Below the pieces are notes generated by a model. The model saw nothing but the letters and a program-made list of their open reading frames with translations, was not told the origin of the DNA and ran no database searches. Of a DNA stretch of 64,000 nt, positions 20,615-38,142 are shown in pieces. The translations under genes and the position numbers were made by a program. The first letter of the stretch is position 1, and each line of letters begins with the position of its first letter. Source of the stretch: Ectocarpus siliculosus (taxonomy: Eukaryota > Sar > Phaeophyceae > Ectocarpales > Ectocarpaceae); contig FN649759.1 of assembly GCA_000310025.1 (NCBI GenBank), forward strand, positions 527,338 through 591,337, in the 5' to 3' direction.

Positions 20615-20707
20615 TTACTTCTTGTTCTTCCTCTTCTTCTTCTTCTTGCTGGAGGTGCTGTTGGAACCCTTTTGTAAGGTCGCCTTTGGTGCCGTGACTG
20701 CCGGGGT

Positions 20708-20738
<31 letters not shown>

Positions 20739-23700
20739 GCGCCCTTCAGCACGGCCTTCTCAACACCCGTCGCTGTCTTCTCGGCAACGGCAGCCGCAGC
20801 CGCTGCCTCGGGAGCCTTCACCTCAACAGCCGGTGCCTCCGGTGCCGCAACATCTACAGCGGGGGTCTCAACACTCAATGATGGCACTTCCGGTGTCTTC
20901 ACCTCGACAGCAGGGGCTTCCACACTCACAGCCGGGATTTCCGGTGACTTCACGTCAACAGCAGGGGCTCCAACGCTGACAGCCGCCACTTCCGCCTCGA
21001 CAGCAGGGGCTTCCACACTCACATCCGGGATTTCCGGTGACTTCACGTCAACAGCAGGGGCTTCAACGCTGGCATCAGGCACTTCCGGCGCCTTCACGTC
21101 AACAGCAGGCGCTTCAACGCTGACAGCCGGGACTCCCGCCTCGACAGCAGGGGCTTCCACACTCACATCCGGGATTTCCGGTGACTTCACGTCAACAGCA
21201 GGCGCTTCAACGCTGACAGCCGGGACTTCCGCCTCGACAGCAGGGGCTTCCACACTCACAGCCGGGATTTCCGGCGCCTTCACGTCAACAGCAGGGGCTC
21301 CAACGCTGACAGCCGCCACTTCCGCCTCGACAGCAGGGGCTTCCACACTCACAGCCGGGATTTCCGGTGACTTCACGTCAACAGCAGGGGCTTCAACGCT
21401 GGCATCAGGCACTTCCGGCGCCTTCACCTCAACAGCAGGGGTTTCCACACTCACAGCCGGGATTTCCGGCGCCTCCACCTCCACATCAGGCGCTTCAACA
21501 CCGACAGACGGAACTTCCGGCGCCTTTATCTCAACCGCAGGGGCTGCAACACTGATACCAGGCACTTCCGGTGCCTTCACGTCAACAACCGGGGCTTCAA
21601 CGCTGACAGCCGGGACCTGAGACGGGAAAGATGGAGCAAGCAATGGCGATGTAACTACTGGAGGTTCGGCATGTACTGGTGCTGGTGGCGATGGTGATAC
21701 AAGAGGTGGGTCACGGCGCAACATGACTGCTGCCAACGGGTTTAGGAAAAAGGACCCTACGAAAGCACGTCCTCAATGATGGTTGATCACTCCACCTATC
21801 TTTTCATTTCCAATCCGAGCGTCGTGCTCCATGTTCTGCACGTAGCGAAGAACCCCTCTGCATGGGCTGTCTGAATTGCTCATGTCAACAGGCTCACGCC
21901 GAAAAATATTTTGTCTTTATTTGTGTAGCATTGTGTTCCTAGTGACCTGTGCATGAGCTGTCTGAATTGCTCATGTCAACAGGCGTAAAAAAAAAAAAAT
22001 AGCATCACGCTCGTTTGGAGAAGAGAAGCAACGACACGCCCAGACCAAGCAGGGTAACACGAGAACAACCACGCGGCTGCTCCAGAAACTCACCTCCACT
22101 GCCGGGGTGTCAACAAACGGCACGTCCACGGCCGGGGTGTCGACAGCCGCAACCTCCACGGCCGGAGCGCTCACATCGGGGACCTCAACAGATGCAGACG
22201 GCACCTCGACAGCCGGAGTGTCAACAGCCGGCACCTCGACAGCCGGGGTTTCGACAGACACGGAAGGCATCTCTTCCGCCGCTGCAACCTCCACGGCCGG
22301 AGCGCCCACGGCCGGGACCTCAATGGACCGGGCATCACCGCCGACAGACGGCACATCCACGGCCGGCACATCAGCTGCCGGGGTGTCAACTGCCGGAGTC
22401 TCCACGGCCGGGATCTCGACGGAAGCGGAAGGCACCTCGGCTGCTGCCGCCGCCGCAACCTCCGCCGCCGGGGCGGTCGCATCCGGGACCTCAACAGACG
22501 CAGACGGCACCTCCACGGCAGGTGCGTCAACTGCCGGAGTGTCGACAGCCACGGCAGGCGCTACGACAGATGCCGCAAGTTCCACTGCTAATGTGTCAAC
22601 TGCCGGAGTCTCCACCGCTGGTGTTTCAACAGCTGGCGTGTCAACAGCCGGCGTGTCGGCCGTCACGGAAGGCGCTTCGACCGCCGCAGCAACCTCCGCT
22701 GCCGGAGCACTCACGTCCGGCACCTCAGCAGATGCAGACGGCACCTCCACCGCCGGCGTGCCAACAGCCGGAGTGTCAACAGCCGGCACCTCGACAGCCG
22801 GGGTCTTGACGGACGCGGAAGGAACTTCGGCGGCCGGTGCCGAAACCTCCACGGCCGGAGCATCGACCGCCGGAACCTCAGCAGACGCAGACGGCACCTC
22901 CACCGCTGGTGTGTCAACCGCCGGCGTCTCGACAGATACGGAAGGCGCTTCGGGTGCCGCAGCCACAACGTCCACGGCCGGAGCGCTCACGTCCGGGACT
23001 TCGACAGCGGGGGTGTCAACAGCGATATCGGGCATCTCGCCGGAGGGTGCAGCATCGACGGTCGGTCCTGAAGAGCAACGTCGTCAAACCAAGCGGAGGG
23101 GGTGAAGGCATTGGTCAGTGGGCAATGTGCACAGCATGTCTCATCCACCGGTAACAGCGAGATAGTACTGTTCTCGAACAAGACCAAAAGGCACGCTACT
23201 CGCCCACATATCCATTGATTGACGACAATGAGAGGTGCCAAGCAGCGAGTGATCTTGAGGGCTTCCGAGTTCAGGATCATGGTCACAATCGAACTATTTA
23301 ACGGCAATCGGCTTCCCCCTCCCCCTTGACAGTCAAACAAACCAACACGGCCAACATACAAGCCGAGGGAGCCAACCAACACCTCGCCTACTTGCGGGCA
23401 CGCCTCGGCTTAACCTACAGCAGATTACGTCATCCCGCCCAGGGACTTCACCCGCACATTCCGTTGGCCATTTTCTTGGCACACAAACCACCCAACAAAA
23501 AAAAAAAACTTACCGGATACACCGAGGCCGCCATCGGTCGCTGGGGCAACTACAGCGGCGGTGCTGTCGGGCCCAACAATCGCCGATTCCATCTTGGCCA
23601 CCATGTCCGAAACAGGCGGCAGCTCGCCGGCCTCCGTCTCCGGCGCACCCTTCTCGACAGCCGCCGTAGCGGGAGGAGATACGGCGGCGGCGGCGGCGGT

Positions 23701-26603: not shown

Positions 26604-26635
<32 letters not shown>

Positions 26636-27853
26636 GCCTTCACATTAAAAAACCGTTCCGATCTCTCTCTACACAGTACCTTCATATGTCCGTACTGATC
26701 CAACACTTGACGCCGTCGATTCCCGTAGTCACAGGCTATGTAACTTACCCTAAAAAGGTACACGCTCAAACAAACTGGCCCCAAGGGAAGGTACTGGGAA
26801 GGTACTGGGTAGAGAGAGATCGGAACGGTTGTTAATGTGAAGACAACAACAACAACAACAACAAGGGGTCCGCAAGTCAATAGAAATCAACGACAGGTAT
26901 TCTGGAGTCCTCCGCTCCCTCTGCGGGTTGGGACCCCGACAATTGGCGGTAACCGCGTACCATGCATCGCCACGCACCACTCGCCCATGACAACACTATT
27001 ATACATGATATTTGCCTCGGGTCTCTGCCTGACGTACCCACGAAATGCTGCACTACATTCAAGTCGTGCTTCTGTCTTACACCAGCAGCCGTGCTGCTGT
27101 GCTATGCGTTGGGACTCTCCGTTGTTCGCTCTGCCGCACATTTCTTCGTTGTTCGAAGTTGAGATAGAGCAGGTGGATCGAAGTTTAAGTGCCCCTGCGG
27201 CAGTTGCCTAGCAGCAGTTCTTTTTTGGCTGTGAAACTATCGTGTGTATGTGCGGTGTGATCACATTTTCTACATACATATACAGCTGAGCTGGTGAACG
27301 TTGGGAAAAACCACACGACACCATGTACATAATCTGCTGCTGCTGTTGTGCAGACGAGGCACGCCGTTCATGTACAAAGATCCCTGCGAGATGCCCCACA
27401 AAAGTATGGGCAAGCCAAGCTCGAACCTTCATGGGCAGCACTCGTGTCGGGGGGAGGGGGAGCAAGCAAGCCGCCAACGCTCTTCGCACCTGGTGTCATG
27501 GAGCGCGGGCCATGCACACCCCACGCACATGCTCTTTTTGGGTCCAAATGGAACCGATTTCAAAATCGAAGATATATTCTCATACGCCGAAATACAGCAG
27601 CACCACACAGCAACGCGGGCGTACTCCCAAGCACCGCACACACAGGCCTCGATCTCCGGTCAAGGCACAAGGCACAGCCGCAGTTGAGCTCACTTTCACG
27701 AAAAAAACGCTTCTGTTCTACTCTACTCCACACTCCACACAACGCTCGTCTGAAACACACCTCGGTCGGTTTGACGACGAGATCTGCGGGCGGAGCCGCT
27801 GCTGGAGCGGGTGCCCCTGCCGCGGCTTGTTGCTTGGATGACGTGCACCCCAT
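20615..27853 (-). CDS. Periodic Pro/Ala/Val/Glu-rich protein with N-terminal acylation motif
   Basis: Five exons on the minus strand: 27853-27761, 24911-24534, 24015-23514, 23067-22094, 21616-20615. They total 2949 nt (982 residues plus stop) with consistent phases and GT-AG introns. The N-terminus MGCTSSKQ fits the N-myristoylation consensus (Gly2, Ser6, Lys7) with a palmitoylatable Cys3, so membrane anchoring is predicted. Residues 32-325 are Ala/Val/Pro/Glu-rich. Residues 325-649 carry TPAVEVPSASVEVP-type repeats, and 650-940 alternate a 17-residue unit (APAVDVKSPEIPAVSVE) with a 14-residue unit (APAVEAEVPAVSVE). The last 12 residues are SSKKKKKRKNKK. No folded domain is recognised. Composition resembles PEVK or AHNAK-like spacers by analogy only. 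Intron 1 (2.8 kb) contains a foldback element. Joining the first exon is the least certain step, because it rests on phase and composition. Confidence 0.72.
20850..21616 (-). repeat. Coding tandem repeat array, last exon of the periodic-protein gene
   Basis: Alternating 51-bp and 42-bp units encode the 17- and 14-residue repeats. Several units are near-identical at DNA level, indicating recent expansion or gene conversion. The opposite strand is also open (20622-21620) as a by-product of codon composition. Confidence 0.85.
22094..23040 (-). repeat. Coding repeat array, fourth exon of the periodic-protein gene
   Basis: A looser array coding (D/E)TPAVEVPSAS(V/A)EVPD-type units. Units vary more in length and sequence than those of the last exon, suggesting an older expansion. 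The opposite strand is open over 22107-23105 for the same compositional reason. Confidence 0.75.
26602..26866. mobile_element. Foldback (MITE-like) element with GTT/AAC-repeat ends
   Basis: The left arm is a (GTT)n run, then TTCACATTAAAAAACCG, TTCCGATCTCTCTCTAC and AGTACCTTC, ending near 26683. The right arm, from about 26799, is its inverse: GAAGGTACTGGGTAGAGAG, GATCGGAACGG, TTAATGTGAAGAC, then (AAC)n. The inverted repeat is about 45-50 bp with few mismatches, around a centre of about 115 bp. No transposase frame is inside. It sits in intron 1 of the minus-strand periodic-protein gene. Confidence 0.75.
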
Positions 27854-29381
27854 GTTGTCTCTACTCCGGTGGTTCGCGCAGGATGGCAGGCAGGGAGCAG
27901 GCAACTAGGATGAAGAAGGCGTGTCAAGTGGACAACGACAACAAGCCAACAGAAAGGTCAACGAAGGGAAGTTGAAAGCAGGGGGCACCGCAGAACCATT
28001 TGTTTGGCTCTTTAAGGTCAACGATCTGAGTTAGCATTTTGTTCGTGTCCCTCCCATCTTTGCTCGCCCCTTTTCCGCAGACAAGGGTACGCACACGCAC
28101 ACGCGTTCGTGCATCATCATCATGACTGCTGTATGCAACGTAGGTTTAGCGCGTGGCGTGATTTGTGGAACCCATGAGCGTATGTTCGCAAAGCATTAAC
28201 ATTTATGCCGAAAAGATCCGAAGATCCGATAATAAAAGTCTTGCCTTGGGTTACATTTGGCGAAGCGAGTTTATTGTAGATGCTCGTGTGTTTTTCACGT
28301 TGTGGCGGATCGCAGAGGTCAATCTGGATTGAACGCATACGGACCCTCCCACTAACCTATTGCTATTGAGAGGCACCAAAGAAGGCGATGTTTGAAGAAG
28401 TTATCCAAGTTATGCAGGTCGAACCAAAGGCACAAAGGCACAAGGTCGAGACCGCTCTCAATTTGTCCCCTCTCCCCTCTCCCTTACCTGGTGGTGCAGC
28501 GGTTCTCTGTACGCACTCCTGATCGTCTTGATTTCACGGAGCCCCCTGTCCTCGATGACGATCAACAACACAACACATTGTGATGCGCGTCACGCAGCGC
28601 GGGGGCTGTTCAGTGCCACCTGCGCATGAACACGACGATGGAGGGTGCATCTTCCCAACGGTCACTTTATGTGCATGATGGTGCGGCCGAAGCCAGCGCT
28701 ACAAATATAGATGAAGCGGTGAGAATAGGTTTGCCCGCACAAGACTAAGCCCAGCAGCAGCACCAGTACACTCTGCTAGGCTGGTAGACCTCCGTGTCAC
28801 AGTAGTGCGCGCATATACTACTGCTGCTCATGCTAGAAGGGACTTTGATAGGATGAGTTTTCCGGCTCTCTTTCGGTGACCCCGTGAACCTGGCCCATGT
28901 CGTGGGTACTGGCGTATTGGCTGCTGTAGGCGGGCCATTTCAACCGAAGACGGGAACGAGCAGACAACTGCTACAGCAGTACTTCAATAGCTGAGGTGTT
29001 GTCAAAGCCTGCCGCTGGAAGACAAGAGCTTCGTTCCAGTAGTTTACAACGGAACGGAGAGAAGAAGACGGAGGTCTGTGCAAACGTTAGTTTTATTGTA
29101 CTGTTGACTGCTGTAGCACGCAGCTAAGCTGTCCACAACCTCCCCGGCCAGCCAATCATAGGCGGGGGATTTGGGCTAAAATTATAGCTGGGGGCGTGAC
29201 AATAAAACCAAGTGAAGTTTGACCAAAAACCTGCTGTTCCACCACGTGTTCCGCCGCGTGGAACACTTTTTTCCACCGCACTTTTTCAAATGGGGGCCAA
29301 GACAGCGATCAGCACCAGGACACATACGACACAAACGACCACGGTTATGATCAGACCGAGCACGCCAGGAGTGTAACGAAC
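27854..29381. promoter_or_regulatory. Divergent intergenic region between the periodic-protein and transposase-like genes
   Basis: About 1.5 kb separates two divergent start codons, so it must contain the promoters of both or a shared one. No TATA element or motif pair could be named with confidence. An 8-bp perfect inverted repeat (TGTTCCAC / GTGGAACA) lies at about 29237-29266, some 120 bp before the plus-strand start. No open frame with support is present. Confidence 0.4.
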
Positions 29382-32300
29382 ATGGCAGATCCACCTATCC
29401 CTCTCGCCGCGACCAATGGCAATGCTCCTGGTGCTCATGGCCGAAGACGGCTCCTCGGACCGCGAAAACCGAGGCAGAGAAAAGGGTACGCCGCCTTGTA
29501 TGCCTTGAAGCCCGCAGAGGTTTGTTTCAAGTGCGCGTACGCCGAACGCAGCGGGTGCACGGAGGGGACAGACGGGAGTGACAGAGGCTACAGTGGAGCG
29601 TGGCATGCAGCAGGCCAATTGAGGGCAAGCCGTACGTACGATCATAAGCACTTCGAGCAGTATTGCGCAGCGCACTGGCCTGAAATCATGGAAAGCACGA
29701 GCGGAGGCCGGGTAGCGCGGCCGCTGACTGCAGGGGCAGCAGCGGGTGCGTCTTCCGCGGCTGAACCCGGCTCACGTTCCGCAAGCAGCACGAGCGGTGC
29801 GGGTGCTGACATTGACCAGGTTCCCTTGGTCGCCACTTTTCCTCGCCCAGGAGGGGCAGAGGTTCAGCTAAAGAGGCTATCGGACTTGTTTTTCAACGGG
29901 CAGTCCTGCCCCACGAAGGAGAGTGCCGATGCTCCACGGGTGTTGTCGCCCCGAACACAGCGGCACACGGAGCTCACGGATAAAGCGGTTAGGGAGGCGG
30001 TGGCGAAGGTTGTGCATCCGCTCAGGAAAGGGATGCCGAGGCTGACGAAGGATGGGTCACTGTCGGACTCCGGGAAATGGGGAGACGCTTGGAAGGATCA
30101 ATCCAAATGGCCTGGGGCGTACATGCGTCTGGAGGATTCGGGGATACGTGCTATGCGGTCCAAAGGGGATGGTGACTGGACGGCGGAGTCCAAGGAACTT
30201 GCGCGGATACACCACCTGGTGACCGGAACTGTCGTGTTCGTCATGCCTGAGGTGATTTGCACGAAACAGTAGTCGTAATAGTCGGAAGAACATAGTTTTG
30301 TATGCCTGCACGTGCAGGCTTCTCTAGTCTCGACAGCAGTACGGCAGTAGTCGGGAGTACGACACAAGATCATACACCCACATGAGATAAGAGACACCCC
30401 CATAGAGTACAACCCGGTGATTTGTACGACGAAGTGTTGTCCCCGGGGTTTAGTAGGATTTCGAACGAGTACGCGGCTCCAACAGTCAAGGGACAGAGGT
30501 TCCAGCGACGTGTGTGTCGTGTGTGCAACGAACGTTCCTGCTGTATGAAGTATACAAGTACGATGATGAGAGCCTCGCCGTTGATGAATGAAAGCGCCCC
30601 CCAAAACCACGCATCTCTGCCTATCTGGGAATATGTGTCTAAGTATAATGTAAACAGCACTCGCGATGATTCTACATTTTGCTCCTTCCTACCCGCTGAA
30701 TGTTCAGGTTTTCGACAGACAAGCCCTATTGGCATCGAAAGAATTTCAAGTCATTCGGGGTGACCGGGTGGTTGGCGCACGGTTGATTTGCCCGACCTGC
30801 CGGAGCAACGCCCACACGAGTTGGGCTTCGTGGAGCGACGTGAGGACGAGTGTTGGCATTTCCCTGCTAGTTGCTGCTGTGCAATAGCAGACGTCGTAAG
30901 AATGTCTTGGTATTTCCCTGTGTGTTGCTGCTGTGCAAATATGGTGGGCATGTCTTCTGTGTATTGCTTTATTTTTACGCGGTGGGCGCATGCCAATCAC
31001 CTGATGTTAAGGTGTTTCTGTTCGCGGCGTTTCTACATCTATCAGATCCGAGCGGTTCACAGCATGTCTGGCGAGAATTTGCTCATTTGCTCAGCCCGCC
31101 ACCGATGCTTGGGGCCGGAGTGCCGAGCTGTAACGGACGCCACGATTGCAGCCATGAAACGGCGAGACGACGGTGGGGAGGCGAGGGTGCAAGCCAAGAA
31201 GAAGGGAGCGGATAGCGTGGACAGTGCACCCGACGCTGTGAAGGCGGCGTTACGCAGGGGTGATATCAAGTGGGAAGGATGTATGAGTCTTGTCAAGACT
31301 CTGCTCAAGGGAGGCGTGTCTTTCACGATTTCGGACCTAGAGGTGTGATTCTCTCGTGCCGCATAAATTGGCCGTTGATGGCAATGGGGCATCTCCCTTT
31401 CGGGCTATTGTTTGTCCAGCTGGTTGTTTATTACAATTCTCGCACGTGCCGTCAACATTCCTGACCGTTTCGATTGTTCCCGGTATCGCTGCTCTGTCGC
31501 CCACGAAGTTACATGAGACTTCTTCCGGCGGCTGTCCAAGCGAAGTACGACTTCGAGTGCTTCGGTAAGGGTGGCGCCGATCATGCCCTTCTCGACCTCA
31601 CTGTGACAGGAGCGCAGCCTGTAGCGGCTTTGCACCGTCAAGCGAAGGAGGTACGCTAGGGGGTGTTTGTTGTGCCCTGAATACCTGCGGTCAAATAAAT
31701 AATATCTTACAAGTGCAGAACGGAGAGTAGACCTATAAACTCGGCAAAACTAGGATCGGGGTTTATATTGAAAGTGCTTTCCCGATGCAACTCCAGATGC
31801 TACTCCAGAAAAATAAATCATATGGTTTGCGTACAACGATGGCCTCTGCTTGGAGTTTCGGTTTTACTTTGCATTATGGTCTATTGATGTGTTATTCTTG
31901 CAGGCATACGACTTCAAGCAGAGACAGAGGCACACGTGCTGGAACGTGTTCGCAGCGATGCACAAGGGCTCAGGAGTGTTCCCGAAGTTGGGGGTGGTGG
32001 GGAGCGGCACCCTTCTATCTGGCCCCTCTCAGGCATACATGGAGACGTACTGCTCGAAGTCGTTCCAGGCGGTGAGGAACGCTTGGAAGGAGGGCTGTAG
32101 TTTTGAACAACTACGAGTGTTGGGTATGCTTGCACATGAGCTGAGAGTGCATCCACATCTAGAGCTAGGCCAAAACATGGGCTAAGCCTTTGCTGTTGAT
32201 CGTTTGCATTAATTTTCCCCCTTGCTAGGTCAAGCCACTTCTGAAGAGAGAGCTTTGCAACCTCTCACCAGGGAAAGCGGTTTCGGTGGATGCTACGTTC

Positions 32301-35300
32301 AGGTTGGCGAAAATAGCCACTGGCGACGCCTCCTGCATCGTCTTCTTGCTGGGAGAGTTCGGCCACATCATTGGATGGGCCGCTCTACGGTCCGACAAGT
32401 GGAGCAACTTGTTGCCATTGCTTCATGCGTGAGTCATGCGATGCGATGTTGATGGGCGTGTAGACGCACCAAAGATCGGAGATATTTGAAGATGGACGCT
32501 AGCTTGTTGCGCTAACCTGGAGCGGCATCTCATTCTTTGCGGCGGTGACACACAGTTGAAAACGACGGCCTTAGATTCGAGACCCATAATTTTTCCTTTT
32601 TCCCCTGTTTTCACATCCTTTTACCAACGAACAGGCTGAGGGCACGTCTGGACCGGCTGGGGACACTGAACGATGTGGTGAAGGTGTTTGCGGACACCTG
32701 CTGCGAAGGGAAGAAAGACGTCACCGTTCACTTGTGTGTCGACATTTTCCCGAACGTGAAGAGGACTCCCTTCGCAGACCTGTTTCACAAGGTCCAGATT
32801 ATTTCCACCCACACACTGAGTGCACACCCTCTCCACGCCGCACTATCCAGGTAAATCGAAAGCGGAAAAGGGGATAGATTTTCGACTGCATGGAAATGTT
32901 GCGATTCGTATCGTCTCGGTGATTGGTAAAGCTAACTGAGGTGTTGTAGTAGGGCACACACGACGGGTGCAATGACCCATCCACGGACGTCGATGGTAGC
33001 GACAAACGTAGGTCACGATTGCCCGTTTCACCCCCCTGCTCGCGTTCTTTCTTTGACGTCGCCGCTTGCTGTTTGTCAGGGAGGTCGGCACCTGCATCGC
33101 AGCGAAGCACGAGCCGGACGTCCACCGCGTGGCGGCCTACATCATCAACAACAGGGGCGTCAACGCAGAGGAGGCTATGGCTCTGGCTGGGAACAGCCAC
33201 TACAGGAGATTCGTCCGTACGCGCACACCTCCCGACTGCGCCGCCCGACTGGGGGACGTTTACGAGAAGTACCTCAAGCTCAGCAACGAATGCGTGCAGA
33301 GGGGCGAGAGACCGCTATACCAGTGAGTGTGTGGTGTCGTTACGCAGTGATTTTGTTGTTGTTTACGTCGTCTATACTCAGTTGAGATTGGGCTAGCAAT
33401 TTTGTTGTCGTAGTGTTGACCATTTTGCCGTGGACCTCGATTGCGCACCCCGAAACAACAGGGAGAAGCGAGGTGCGTCGCAGAGCACTCTCTCTGCTTT
33501 CCAGAACGTCATCGCTTGCGCTAATAAGGGTTGTTTCGCCATGGACGACGTCAAGGACTCGTACATCTGCGACAGGATCGGCGAAAAGACTGAACTTGCC
33601 CACTTGAAGAAGCTCGGGGGCACCGGTGCAAACGAAGCGGCGCACAGGTAAACGGTTGTGGGTATCTACATTTATCCCATTTGTAGGGAAATGCTCAAGC
33701 AGCGGTAACAAGAATAACAACAATGATGGTAGGGTCTTTGAGAGTTCCTGATCACATGTTCAATAGTAGTACCAATTTCAAAAAATTGACGTGGGTATGC
33801 ATACCCCGCCCCTCTACCGCCTTCCAGCCAGGCAAACGGAAGAATCGCGACGATAGCCTCAAGGATGAGTGAGGCGAGGTCTGAGCGCGAGATTTGGTTG
33901 TGGATTCACGAGCACAACCGCACCTGCGACGAGAACCGAGGTATAGCGAAGCCGGACTTCCTGAGAAACTACTGGGAAGAGGAGAAGATCAGGAGGCTGG
34001 CAGGGAACGTCGAGGGACCGTCCCCAGGAGGGAACCTGAGGATTCCACCGGAGGTAAGGCGCCGTAATACGTGTTGAATGGTACGCTTTCGGGAAACAGA
34101 CTAGGGTTGAAACACAGTCAATGCACTCACGGTAGGTCGTCCCCGTCTGCAACCACCTGATTGTTGTCCGTTCCCGTATTCAACCTGATTTGTTCTTTCG
34201 CTAACCCAGTTGGAGGAAAAGGATATGGAGCTGATGGGGTACGACTACCTCTCTTTGGACCAAGACAAGGTTGCGAAGGAGGTTGCGGAGAAGTACCGGA
34301 TGGACTGGAGTTCGATAAGTGCCGCCGCCTTACCAGCAGTGTCTGGGGAAGACCCCTTGCCAGGTTCGTTTTCTTTGCCGGCGGCGTTAGGAAAGAACCC
34401 AAAAACAACATCGAGTAGAGCACCATGTCCACGTACAAACTAGCGTTGTGTTTGCCCATGCTTTTGTCAGGGGAGAACAAGTTCGAACGTGAAGGAGAAC
34501 AGACGCAAGTTAGGATTGCGCCTGCAACAAGTTCAGGTGTGGCGTCCATATCTTTTGGACGGCATGGGGGAAGAGGTTCCGAACGCATTGCCGGAGCTGG
34601 GGGCAATGTTAGGTCAGGTGCGGGCGGGATGGCGGTGACCGGGTTGGCACCTGCTGGAAGGGACAGCACCGCTGTGGGGGGAAGCGGAACAGGTGCCCCG
34701 AGAGCTACTACGACGGAAAGCGAAGCCTCTATGGGGGCGGGGAGCACCAGAGCAGGCTCTACCATGGCATCCGCAACAGCCCTTGGAAAGCGACCAGGTG
34801 CTTTTGATGGACGATAGGCATCTGTTTGAGACCGTCGCGTATAGCGTACAATGGCTTTCGATTCGGCATGCCCTCCCACCTTTGTTCCCTCCCTCCATTT
34901 TCCCTCCGTCTCGCCCCTCACGCCGCCACGCCTCACCATCGGCTCACGATTCGGCATGCCCTCCCACCTTCCTTCCCTTCATTTTCCCTCTGTTGCCCTC
35001 TTCCCTGACCACCACTGCAGCGGCTCGGACGGGCGGGACAGTTGGCGCAGGAGCGGCAGCAAGGGCGGCCTCCCCAGCAGATACTCGAGCTGGGCCGAGA
35101 GCGAGCGGGATGAGTTGGACCTCGAGAGATGACGCCGCACCTACGATGGGGCAGACGGCGGGCGTGAGGGAGGTGGCTGGACCGAGAGACGGGCAGGGGA
35201 GGGTAACCAAGTTCAGGAGGGCCTCCGCGTTGACTGATAAGTTTGCGATGCCTGCTACAGCGGACGACAAGAAGCTTGCATGCGCTGCCTTTGGGGCGGC

Positions 35301-35784
35301 GAAGGCGACAGGTCTGCGAGGCGAAGAGGTGTGGGAGGCTGCTGCCGCGGAATACAACAGCATGTTAGGCCAGGTCTTCCACACCATGGCAGCCACCGGT
35401 CAACCCAGCAAGTATAACTACAGCTTCAACCCCATCGATCGATCACACTTCAAGCGTTATTGGGAAGAGATGTCGGCTGCCTCCATATTACCGATGGCCG
35501 GTGCGGTGTTCGAGCGGTTGGGGGCGGGGGCGGGGGCGGGGGCGGCGGCGGCGGCGGGGGCGGCGGCGGGGGCGGCGACGGGGGCGGCGACGGGCGTGGA
35601 GCACCGGAAGCTAACTGCTCATGAACATCGCACGTGGAGCGGTAACAAACTAAGGAAGGCTTGTCGGGAAAGGGGCATTACGGTCTCAAACTTGACACTT
35701 TATCGTGACAAGGCGGCTCAGAAGTTGTCCGACGCCGGTTGGGTCGTCGGCGAGGGGGAGCTGGCAGAAGAACAAGTGGCATAG
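29382..35784 (+). CDS. DDE-superfamily transposase-like protein with zinc clusters and SAP-like C-terminus
   Basis: Thirteen exons: 29382-30251, 30708-30839, 31046-31344, 31509-31650, 31904 to about 32146, 32229-32428, 32635-32850, 33080-33322, 33414-33647, 33828-34053, 34210-34363, 34471-34797, 35021-35784, for about 1349 residues. Phases agree throughout; only the fifth exon's donor is ambiguous (32116 is the alternative). The N-terminus has CFKC (48-51) with downstream His/Cys, CPTC (318-321), and further Cys at 349, 355 and 360. The catalytic core reads SVDATF (Asp about 583), then FGHIIGW, VFADTCC (Asp about 649), DLFHKV, HPLH, and GANEAAHR (Glu about 856). Asp, Asp and Glu occupy the positions of an RNase-H-fold DDE triad. 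Ala/Gly-rich stretches follow, then a SAP-like helix-extended-helix (about 1302-1332). The specific family could not be named. With 12 introns and no interruption, it could be a host-domesticated gene or an element. Confidence 0.82.
32229..33647 (+). CDS. Catalytic-core exons of the transposase-like gene
   Basis: Four exons carry the candidate triad: 32229-32428 (first Asp in VDATF), 32635-32850 (second Asp in ADTCC, then the LFHKV and HPLH signatures), 33080-33322 (helical insert), 33414-33647 (Glu in GANEAAHR). About 206 residues separate the second Asp from the Glu. Such long helical insertions before the last acidic residue are typical of MULE- and hAT-like DDE enzymes. All three acidic positions and the flanking FH and HR residues are intact. 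Confidence 0.75.
34858..35000. repeat. Imperfect tandem duplication inside the last intron of the transposase-like gene
   Basis: GATTCGGCATGCCCTCCCAC occurs at about 34860 and again at about 34950. Each copy is followed by a pyrimidine-rich run ending in ATTTTCCCTC. The duplicated tract forms the polypyrimidine region before the acceptor at 35020. Confidence 0.7.
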
Positions 35785-38142
35785 GGGCGGACTAGGAGTG
35801 CACGTTTGTTTTGGGGCGGCCGTCTTTGAGGTTGGGGTACTCCGTTTTATTGCAGGAGAGTGTGTGCGGGAGTCTCGTGTATGGATGAACCCGTTGTGTT
35901 TTTTGTGTACTTGAGGTTATCTGTTGTGCTGAGAGGGGGGTCTTCGTCCCTTTGTGCATGCTGCTACTTCTACATACAAGAGTAATTCTCCCATAATGTT
36001 CTTGGGTGGGACACTGCTGTGCCAGATACAGTATTGTAGTCTACATCATGTGAGAACATGATGTACTGCTGTAGATGGTATCATTGTGCACATAAGAAAA
36101 CACAGAATCGGCGACGGCGGCCGTCTGCTGGCGGGAAGCGAACGTGTATAGAAAGAGAGCAGCAAAAATGCTGAGATGTACACACGCGCAGATTGACTTC
36201 GCGCTGAACGCTCTTCGGAGCAACAATTCGATAGGTATGACGTCTGATGTACGGCAGTGCTGCTGTAGTTGTAGCGTGAGCAGTGCGTTCGTTGTGTCCG
36301 TTGTGCAGACTCTTCGTCATACCACATATACATGCATATCACAGCCATCAAGGCGAATGTTACATGGATGGTCCGAGCGTGGATGCCACAGGGCTATAAG
36401 AGGAATCAACAACAGGCCACCACGCCGATACAAAAAAGCACTCGTCCTGCTGTGTGATGCACTGCTGCTGTGTGTATGCATACTACAGCAGTAGTTTGCC
36501 CCAGCCGCTAGCTGCGGGTAAGGATGCCTCGCTTAACAACCCAAGAATAGGTTGTTTGTCAGGTTCGTTGCTGTCGAAGAAAAAAACGCTGCTGTCGCCG
36601 CTGTCAGTGTGGTGAAACAGAAACCGTGCAAAATGGCAGCTTGATTGTGCTTTGCGGGTGTAGGGTTCATCCGCAGGACAGCTCTCTTCACCTTTAACGG
36701 CGCATGTGCACGCTCAAAGCAAAGAGAGACAGGTGTCCGAGAGAATTGGAATGTCAACGGAACAAGACCAACAGCAGTGCGTGGTGTCCGAGAGGATTGC
36801 TGATGAGTCAACGGAACGACAGCGAAAGGCGCCATGCGTCTATCTACCTACAATAGAGTACGAAGGGCCAGCTTGGGTGCACTGGTTCATGTTGATATTT
36901 ATGTTGTTGCGTTGTGTAGCCTACGCGCGAGGGTCAAGCCTTCCTGATCATTTCTTTCATCATACTCCCCCGTCACCGTCATCCGTCTTCCCCAGCAGCC
37001 GTCCGCAGCTTGCTTTCGTAGATTCACACGACTGGAACAGGCGTTCTACGGTGTTCCAGTCTGTTCGACGATGGAACGGTGGAACATTCCTTCCCACACA
37101 AAGAACAAGTATTTTTTTCCCCCAGCGAAGACGTACTCTCCCTCCCCGGTCGTACCTTTTATGCGATGACGCCAAGCCATCCTTAGCGATGTACAACCGC
37201 TGCAGCAGTTTCTACCGTACGATGATACCGTAAGTGGCACGAGATAGCACACTCATAGAAGATAGCACACACCCAACACATCTCTCCAGGAAAGCACACC
37301 CGGTGATGTTTGTTTTGGGCACGGAGAAAACGCCAATTTATCACACCGTTGCCACAAGATAGCACACCCCCTACAATGCCGCATTTTCATTCACGGAGCG
37401 CCCATTATCACACCTGGTGGCTGGTGGCTGGTGGTACGGATGTGCACAGCCCGACGTGCACACACACGAACAGAGGCACACACCTGGTATGCACACAAAC
37501 AAGGACAATACGGAGGTGAGGGAGGTACACAACCCTCCTGGAAACAACTCTGCTGGAAGTGACGAGGCTCAGACGGTGCCTTCAAAAAGGCCCGCGTATA
37601 TATCACACCCCTCAAAGGAATGTGGCGGCAACAATGTGATGACACCCCTCCAAGGAGTGTGTGTGCTTACATAATAGAGGTATCACACGCACCCTTAACA
37701 TACCACACCTCTTCTAGGAATATTTTGAATGTGGGAGCAGAAATTAGATGGCACTAGAGATATCACACCCCCTTTTTACCACGCCCCTTCAAGGAAAGTG
37801 GGAGCCGCAATCTGCTGGCAACGTTGTTATCACACCCCTTCAAAGGAATGGTGGAGCAGGTAAATATGTTACCACAAACCCTTTTCATCACCCCCTCCGA
37901 TTGCGAGCTCTGTCAACGTGCACGTTATCACACCGGTGACACATGATAGCACACCCATTCCAGGAAAGCACACCCGCTGATGAGTTTTTTAAACTCCTAA
38001 AGGGGCAGGAGAGGAAATACGATAGTGTTGAAGTATGTAACCCTTGGGCTACATTATGCTATGTTCGTACGTGGTAGTAAATCGTTCATGTTGGCCCCCC
38101 TCCTTTGCCTTTGAGGCTTGGCACCGGCGCTACCGTACGTTG
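35785..38142. other. Intergenic region upstream of TAF1
   Basis: No gene is supported. A 175-codon frame at 36706-37233 lacks domains and includes a local imperfect duplication (GTGTCCGAGAG near 36735 and 36785). From about 37.2 kb the sequence is dominated by degenerate ATCACACCCC-type units. The TAF1 promoter and any missing first exon should lie here. Confidence 0.5.
37215..37985. repeat. Degenerate interspersed ATCACACCCC repeat cluster
   Basis: At least eight units read roughly (G/T)AT(C/A)(A/G)CACACCCC, followed by a short spacer, CAAGGAA and a GTGG-like stretch (for example near 37599, 37640, 37770, 37830 and 37950). Spacing is irregular (about 40-90 bp), so this is not a simple satellite. 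Related units occur near 47.40, 47.50 and 49.12 kb. Confidence 0.65.

What the first reader, a model, noticed from the sequence alone, without database searches (positions are those of the whole stretch)
29382..35784. Uninterrupted 13-exon DDE transposase-like gene of unnamed family
Thirteen exons join in phase into about 1349 codons with Asp (VDATF), Asp (ADTCC) and Glu (GANEAAHR) in the order and context of a DDE RNase-H fold, with N-terminal zinc clusters and a SAP-like tail. Twelve introns and no disabling change are unusual for a mobile element. The combination suggests either domestication or an uncharacterised intron-rich transposon lineage. No terminal inverted repeats were found in the flanks.
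Basis: partly seen in the sequence, partly recalled or inferred. Interest (0 to 1): 0.8.

Follow-up and report, generated by a model that had tools for sequence, protein, structure and literature searches.

The report
Recently mobile Dada-like DNA transposon
The gene is the likely transposase of an 8-kilobase jumping gene present in several nearly identical copies in this alga-like genome; it resembles the known Dada transposons, but was not found in the small-RNA genes that Dada elements normally target.

Summary
I join 14 exons (29382-35784) into one 1426-residue frame with Asp660, Asp726, a DLFH motif and Glu933. It is not a lone domesticated gene but part of a ~8.0-kb element, window 29146-37142. 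Five other copies in this genome align with it at 98.4-99.7% identity between unrelated flanks; all five are truncated, gapped or carry a stop or frameshift in this gene model. There are no terminal inverted repeats; GGAACA/TGTTCC lies three times in each terminal 150 bp (0 of 1000 shuffles). The window copy reads as flanked by TCCCCGG, one other by AAAATGG; two complete copies show no duplication. No Pfam family passes its cut-off. The layout fits the published Dada superfamily, and the motifs match a Dada element with an exonuclease found in this genome, though the profile match is weak (27.7% probability). Two published Dada traits fail: no C-terminal CCHC finger, no RNA-gene target found. 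I call it Dada-like, a variant, recently mobile. Fold and expression were not tested.

The parts
29146..37142 (+). whole element, about 7997 bp; outermost bases uncertain by about 2
   Evidence: boundaries where near-identical copies stop matching and flanks differ
29141..29147 (+). left copy of candidate 7-bp target-site duplication TCCCCGG (overlaps the first 2 bases of the element as drawn)
   Evidence: an identical 9-mer CCTCCCCGG spans both junctions, so the exact length is ambiguous
37143..37149 (+). right copy of candidate target-site duplication TCCCCGG
29235..29265 (.). left sub-terminal cluster of three TGTTCC/GGAACA motifs
   Evidence: 3 in each terminal 150 bp, 0 of 1000 shuffles; 6 in the 7697 interior bases
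37034..37086 (.). right sub-terminal cluster of three GGAACA/TGTTCC motifs
37025..37066 (.). hairpin in the right end with 10-bp arms GACTGGAACA/TGTTCCAGTC
   Evidence: z -5.3 for these 42 bases; -2.1 for the whole 143-base end
29382..30268 (+). exon 1 (end uncertain: a donor at 30251/30252 is an alternative)
30406..30649 (+). exon 2 (cysteine group CRVCNERSCC; start uncertain)
30708..30839 (+). exon 3 (CPTC, C405 and C408)
31046..31344 (+). exon 4 (C436, C442, C447); donor uncertain because of the extra base at 31338
31509..31650 (+). exon 5
31904..32116 (+). exon 6
32229..32428 (+). exon 7, first Asp (VDATF, D660)
   Evidence: counterpart in the C9 relative
32635..32850 (+). exon 8, second Asp (ADTCC, D726) and DxxH motif (DLFH, D754)
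   Evidence: counterparts in the C9 relative
33080..33322 (+). exon 9
33414..33647 (+). exon 10, Glu (GGTGANEAAH, E933)
   Evidence: counterparts in the C9 and C30 relatives
33828..34053 (+). exon 11
34210..34363 (+). exon 12
34471..34797 (+). exon 13
35021..35784 (+). exon 14 and stop; includes an Ala/Gly tract near 35520-35594 that is 60 bp longer in copy C2b

Best explanation
An autonomous-type DNA transposon, recently mobile, whose only recognisable gene is an intron-rich DDE transposase of the Dada kind. Inferred mechanism: the transposase binds the clustered GGAACA/TGTTCC motifs near both ends through its N-terminal cysteine regions. Its D660-D726-E933 site cuts the ends and joins them to a staggered target of about 7 bp, preferring TCCCCGG-like sequence. 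Some events look one-ended or rearranged, leaving ends without matching duplications. Shown: multiplicity, near-identity, sharp ends between unrelated flanks, motif clusters, counterparts of the motifs in relatives. Inferred: catalysis, binding, splicing, duplication length, target preference as a property of the enzyme, and the placement near Dada.
For: Six copies with unrelated flanks; left-end pattern at 10 places with 0 in the reversed-pattern control, right-end pattern at 6 with 0. Direct repeats of 9 and 7 bp at 2 of the 4 copies with both ends. TCCC directly outside 4 of 10 left ends and 4 of 5 right ends (the truncated C15 left out), about 0.4% expected per site; the motif was chosen after looking. 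Sub-terminal motif clusters, no significant TIR. Published Dada features match (PMC3706591): DDE spacing 66/207 here against 68/176, DxxH, cysteines before the core, about 1400 aa, many exons, 8-kb size. An element at three places in this genome has a PF01612 exonuclease between a DECC and an LDIFH motif, then GTNYTE, the layout published for Dada-1_ES; one of the three was read. Profile comparison of my core with it: E 0.00064; local rerun above all 200 shuffles.
Against: The profile match is short and weak: 69 columns, 27.7% probability; the local rerun gave 19 columns, 4.4% and E 0.0093. No published Dada transposase sequence could be compared. No C-terminal CCHC finger, no RNA-gene target found. 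Two of four complete copies, C30 and C391, show no duplication, the registers of the two that do differ by 2 bp, and one mismatched pairing (W left with C391 right) also shares 7 bp. The window copy has an extra base near a donor. Fold and expression not tested.
Confidence: 0.7

Rival explanations
1. A recently mobile DDE transposon of a separate, unnamed superfamily in the C/DxxH group (with hAT, MuDR, P, Kolobok, Dada); the Dada likeness is general to that group.
For: No Pfam match over cut-off and no NCBIfam match; weak profile probability; two published Dada traits fail.
Against: The shared D-x-C-C, D-x-F-H and G-T-x-x-x-E contexts with the Dada-1_ES-like element, plus absence of TIRs and sub-terminal repeats, seem more specific than the group signature.
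Confidence: 0.22
2. A Kyakuja-type (KDZ) transposon: 7-bp duplications and no TIRs.
For: Two Kyakuja families are reported with 7-bp duplications and no TIRs (PMC12730594, passages); KDZ elements make up 1.8% of the Ectocarpus genome (PMC12477816).
Against: No Pfam family matches the spliced protein; the ends are not the reported CA..TG.
Confidence: 0.04
3. A domesticated host gene derived from a transposase.
For: Long open frame with all three acidic residues in the window copy.
Against: Six near-identical copies, with element ends, at unrelated sites; all five others truncated or with a stop or frameshift; 28 amino-acid-changing (two of them stops) against 13 silent differences from the window copy, counted copy by copy so that shared changes count more than once.
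Confidence: 0.03

Closest known systems
Dada superfamily (Dada-U6_DR and relatives; Kojima and Jurka 2013, PMC3706591; Kojima 2022, PMC8869645)
   Same: DDE with DxxH after the second Asp, D1-D2 spacing 66 against 68, cysteine group N-terminal to the core, about 1400 aa, many introns, 8-9 kb, no TIRs, sub-terminal inverted repeats, 6-7-bp duplications with some ends lacking them, several >99% identical copies.
   Different: No C-terminal CCHC finger; ends beside CTCCCCGG-like or other sequence, no snRNA, tRNA or 5S gene recognised; five cysteines, not four, in the N-terminal group; D2-E spacing 207 against 176.
Dada-1_ES of Ectocarpus siliculosus (described in PMC3706591), and the element of that layout read here (L072/L073)
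   Same: D-x-C-C, D-x-F-H-x-x-Q-x-I-S and G-T-x-x-x-E motifs in the same order; by eye, an intron soon after the Glu in both.
   Different: It has an exonuclease domain between the second Asp and DxxH; the window protein has 28 residues there. That L072 is Dada-1_ES itself was not tested, as the published sequence was not at hand.
Kyakuja (KDZ) transposons of fungi (PMC12730594)
   Same: No TIRs and 7-bp duplications reported.
   Different: No Pfam match; different terminal bases.

Membership tests
Dada | DDE triad with DxxH after the second Asp | tested here: met
   D660, D726, DLFH at 754, E933; counterparts in the C9 relative. By sequence only, no structure.
Dada | N-terminal CCCC zinc finger | tested here: inconclusive
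   C405-x2-C408-x27-C436-x5-C442-x4-C447; published C389, C394, C429, C432; no Pfam support.
Dada | C-terminal CCHC zinc finger | tested here: not met
   Only C1260 and C1387 lie beyond residue 970; a missed 3' exon cannot be excluded.
Dada | Insertion in multicopy small RNA genes | tested here: not met
   0 Rfam matches at gathering threshold in the window and in 31 loci around the copies and end fragments; 0 tRNAs in 16 rejoined empty sites of 4 copies. Split or unlisted RNA genes could be missed.
Dada | No terminal inverted repeats | tested here: met
   First 40 bases of each end: 105 of 500 shuffles do as well
Dada | Short sub-terminal inverted repeats | tested here: met
   TGTTCC/GGAACA three times at each end, 0 of 1000 shuffles; one shared inverted 9-mer TGTTCCACC, but the local alignment of the ends around it is reached by 39 of 500 shuffles
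Dada | 6-7-bp target-site duplications | tested here: inconclusive
   Seen at 2 of 4 copies with both ends, in registers that differ by 2 bp; one mismatched pairing also shares 7 bp
Dada | Sequence homology to Dada transposases | tested here: inconclusive
   Against one local Dada-1_ES-like element only: E 0.00064, probability 27.7%; rerun E 0.0093, 4.4%, 0 of 200 shuffles
Kyakuja (KDZ) | CA..TG termini without TIRs | tested here: not met
   Ends are GGCCAG (or CCAGCC) and CTCTCCC
Kyakuja (KDZ) | KDZ transposase domain | tested here: inconclusive
   No Pfam family at E up to 10 on the spliced protein; that Pfam holds a KDZ model is recalled, not checked
MuDR, hAT, P, Kolobok | Transposase domain models and TIRs | tested here: not met
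   No Pfam match on the spliced protein, no significant TIR
Domesticated transposase | Immobile single-copy gene | tested here: not met
   Six copies with element ends

The most novel reading that the evidence does not exclude
A Dada-sister lineage that gave up RNA-gene targeting and instead chooses a short GC-rich sequence (T-C-C-C-C-G-G), with clustered GGAACA boxes as its end-recognition sites: a natural contrast for asking how Dada transposases choose targets.
Probability: 0.35. Interest if true: 0.5.

Novelty: new variant of a known kind. Interest (0 to 1): 0.36.

Why it matters
Dada elements are known as DNA transposons that insert into small RNA genes by recognising sequence (PMC8869645, abstract). 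A young relative with clear ends and a different target preference would let the targeting determinants be compared. It also shows that a standard profile library can miss an intron-rich transposase, which may explain part of the 51 'DNA/Unknown' families that PMC12477816 lists for Ectocarpus; I could not check whether this family is already in that library.

Tried and rejected
Pfam on ten single-frame stretches and on the spliced protein gave nothing over cut-off (a 605-residue part gave DUF3136 at E 0.19, 12 bits against a cut-off of 27). PHROGs, NCBIfam and the PDB sequence search gave nothing useful (best PDB hit a vimentin chain at E 0.26), nor did Pfam on the relatives. Scans of viral and prokaryote contigs found no relatives. 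Ten short open frames in the 3' 1.4 kb of the element gave no Pfam match over cut-off; two weak ones, DUF7652 and Toxin_37 (antifungal termicin) at E 0.03 and 0.02, lie far below theirs and I take them as chance. Palindromic target: true for copy C2a (0 of 1000 shuffles) but not for C391, C30 or W, so dropped. A longer shared target: left flanks of 10 copies and right flanks of 6 show only short chance-level matches. KDZ considered and set aside.

Full report
Observation. Six-frame reading of 29300-35900 and a splice model by inspection give 14 exons from ATG 29382 to the stop at 35782-35784. The 13 introns are GT-AG and 58-253 bases long. The protein has 1426 residues and no internal stop; the two other frames of the joined sequence hold 47 and 38 stops, and third-position G+C is 66% against 48% in introns. 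VDATF (D660), ADTCC (D726), ADLFH (D754) and GGTGANEAAH (E933) lie at spacings 66 (D1-D2), 28 (D2-DxxH) and 207 (D2-E).

It is a mobile element. A 160-base stretch of exon 7 has six places at 100% identity in the genome that holds the window. With their surroundings these copies match from about 29146 to 37142 and stop there, between unrelated flanks. C30 and C391 are full length (99.7% and 99.6%). C2a is full length with 842 bases reading N. C2b lacks the first 0.77 kb and has a 60-bp longer repeat tract; C31 ends near 33224. End-sequence searches add fragments: pieces of the left part on C9 (980 bp, 99.9%), C16, C33, C3 and C99, a degraded left end on C21, and a right-end piece on C15. The left-end pattern, up to 3 mismatches, occurs at 10 places with 0 in the reversed control; the right-end pattern at 6 with 0. 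In the 3' 1.4 kb, ten open frames gave no Pfam match over cut-off, so the transposase is the only gene I recognise; small or spliced genes could be missed.

State of the copies. Substitutions in exons against the window copy are 4-14 per copy. C391 has a 1-base insertion in exon 1; C30 has 1-base insertions in exons 9 and 14, and a stop at codon 293 that may be intronic; C2a has a stop at codon 269. C31 and C2b are truncated. The window copy has an extra base at 31338; four other copies lack it and C30 also has one. With the donor at 31343 the window frame breaks; with the GT at 31345 it is kept. Only RNA can settle this. Changes from the window copy are 28 amino-acid-changing, two of them stops, and 13 silent, counted per copy, which gives no sign of selection on the copies after insertion.

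Ends and target. No significant terminal inverted repeat. GGAACA/TGTTCC occurs three times in each terminal 150 bp and six times in the 7697 bases between; no 6-mer did as well in 1000 dinucleotide-preserving shuffles of the ends. The right cluster includes a hairpin, z -5.3 for 42 bases chosen around it and -2.1 for the 143-base end. At the window copy CCTCCCCGG spans both junctions, so a 7-bp TCCCCGG duplication is the simplest reading. C2a has AAAATGG on both sides, in a register 2 bp different. C30 and C391 show none. As a control, mismatched pairings of ends share up to 7 bp (W left with C391 right, CCTCCCC), because of the common motif. TCCC stands directly outside 4 of 10 left ends (W, C31, C99, C3) and 4 of 5 right ends (W, C391, C30, C2b; the truncated C15 was left out), against about 0.4% expected per site for a motif chosen after looking. 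That part of this motif belongs to the element is not excluded. Flanks share nothing longer. No Rfam family reaches its threshold in the window or in 31 loci around the copies and fragments, and 16 rejoined empty sites of 4 copies hold no tRNA.

Relatives. A search of the own genome with a 605-residue stretch gave the six copies and one divergent gene on C9 (23.0-24.6 kb, 43% identity in the best stretch), plus a weak piece on C30 (1478.5 kb, E 0.14); the C30 piece matches the C9 gene at 52%. Their alignment has counterparts of the motifs: SDGTF, DDRCC, ADSFH, GGTAKNESFH on C9 and GGTGKNENFH on C30. No relatives came from viral or prokaryote contigs. Pfam gave nothing for the relatives.

Placement. 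The Dada papers (PMC3706591: passages and both parts of the Results section; [quoted passage not shown] Dada elements have 6-7-bp duplications, ends that sometimes lack the duplication (explained there as one-ended transposition), and >99% identical copies. That paper also says that the Dada of Ectocarpus (Dada-1_ES) and of Laccaria hold an exonuclease between the second Asp and DxxH. A search of the own genome for PF01612 gave 6 matches, of which two score equally and a third nearly so (C3, C34, C34). The one I read has ...TDECC..., the exonuclease (PF01612, E 9.5e-6)...VRLDIFHALQRISR... and ...RGTNYTE. My three-sequence profile aligns with its DxxH region at E 0.00064 and 27.7% probability; a local rerun with other settings gave only 19 columns, E 0.0093 and 4.4%, still above all 200 shuffles and the reversed sequence. 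So the kinship is supported, not proven. Because a C-terminal CCHC finger and an RNA-gene target were tested and not met, I call it Dada-like and not a Dada member.

Host. The genome is 189 Mb in 492 contigs. Intron-rich genes, and a Dada element with an exonuclease as PMC3706591 reports from Laccaria and Ectocarpus, suggest a brown alga near Ectocarpus. The Ectocarpus TE survey (PMC12477816: outline with abstract, passages and part 2 of one Results section) lists one Dada family with 15 copies and 51 unclassified DNA families. I could not see its library, so I do not claim that this family is unrecorded. In the listings of five paper searches and the parts read I saw no description of it.

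Noticed in passing
L072 and L073 (G000:C34:791330-795600), also hits at C34:803853 and C3:6011715: A second Dada-type element with a PF01612 exonuclease inside the transposase (Dada-1_ES layout); three equal or nearly equal exonuclease hits, two of them about 10 kb apart. Only one was read.
   Followed up: partly
L053 (G000:C9:22973-24611): Divergent relative of the window transposase with at least one intron fewer; no second near-identical copy found in the genome, so either an old element or a candidate for a settled gene.
   Followed up: partly
L055 (G000:C30:1478472-1478741): Fragment with GGTGKNENFH in a 398-aa open frame, 52% identical to the C9 relative over 90 residues.
   Followed up: no
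copy C2a insertion site (L010/L062): The target lies between the arms of an inverted repeat (GGCGCCCGAAAAT / ATTTTCGGGCGCC); not seen at the three other complete copies.
   Followed up: yes
window 20615-23035: Two long minus-strand open frames of V-E-A-P-A-V-type repeats (373 and 354 aa); the 373-aa one was scanned and has no Pfam match.
   Followed up: partly
window 37223-37990: Imperfect direct repeats around GATAGCACACCC just right of the element.
   Followed up: no
window 26604-26864: Inverted repeat with TTG/CAA runs and 36-bp arms at 94% complementarity.
   Followed up: no
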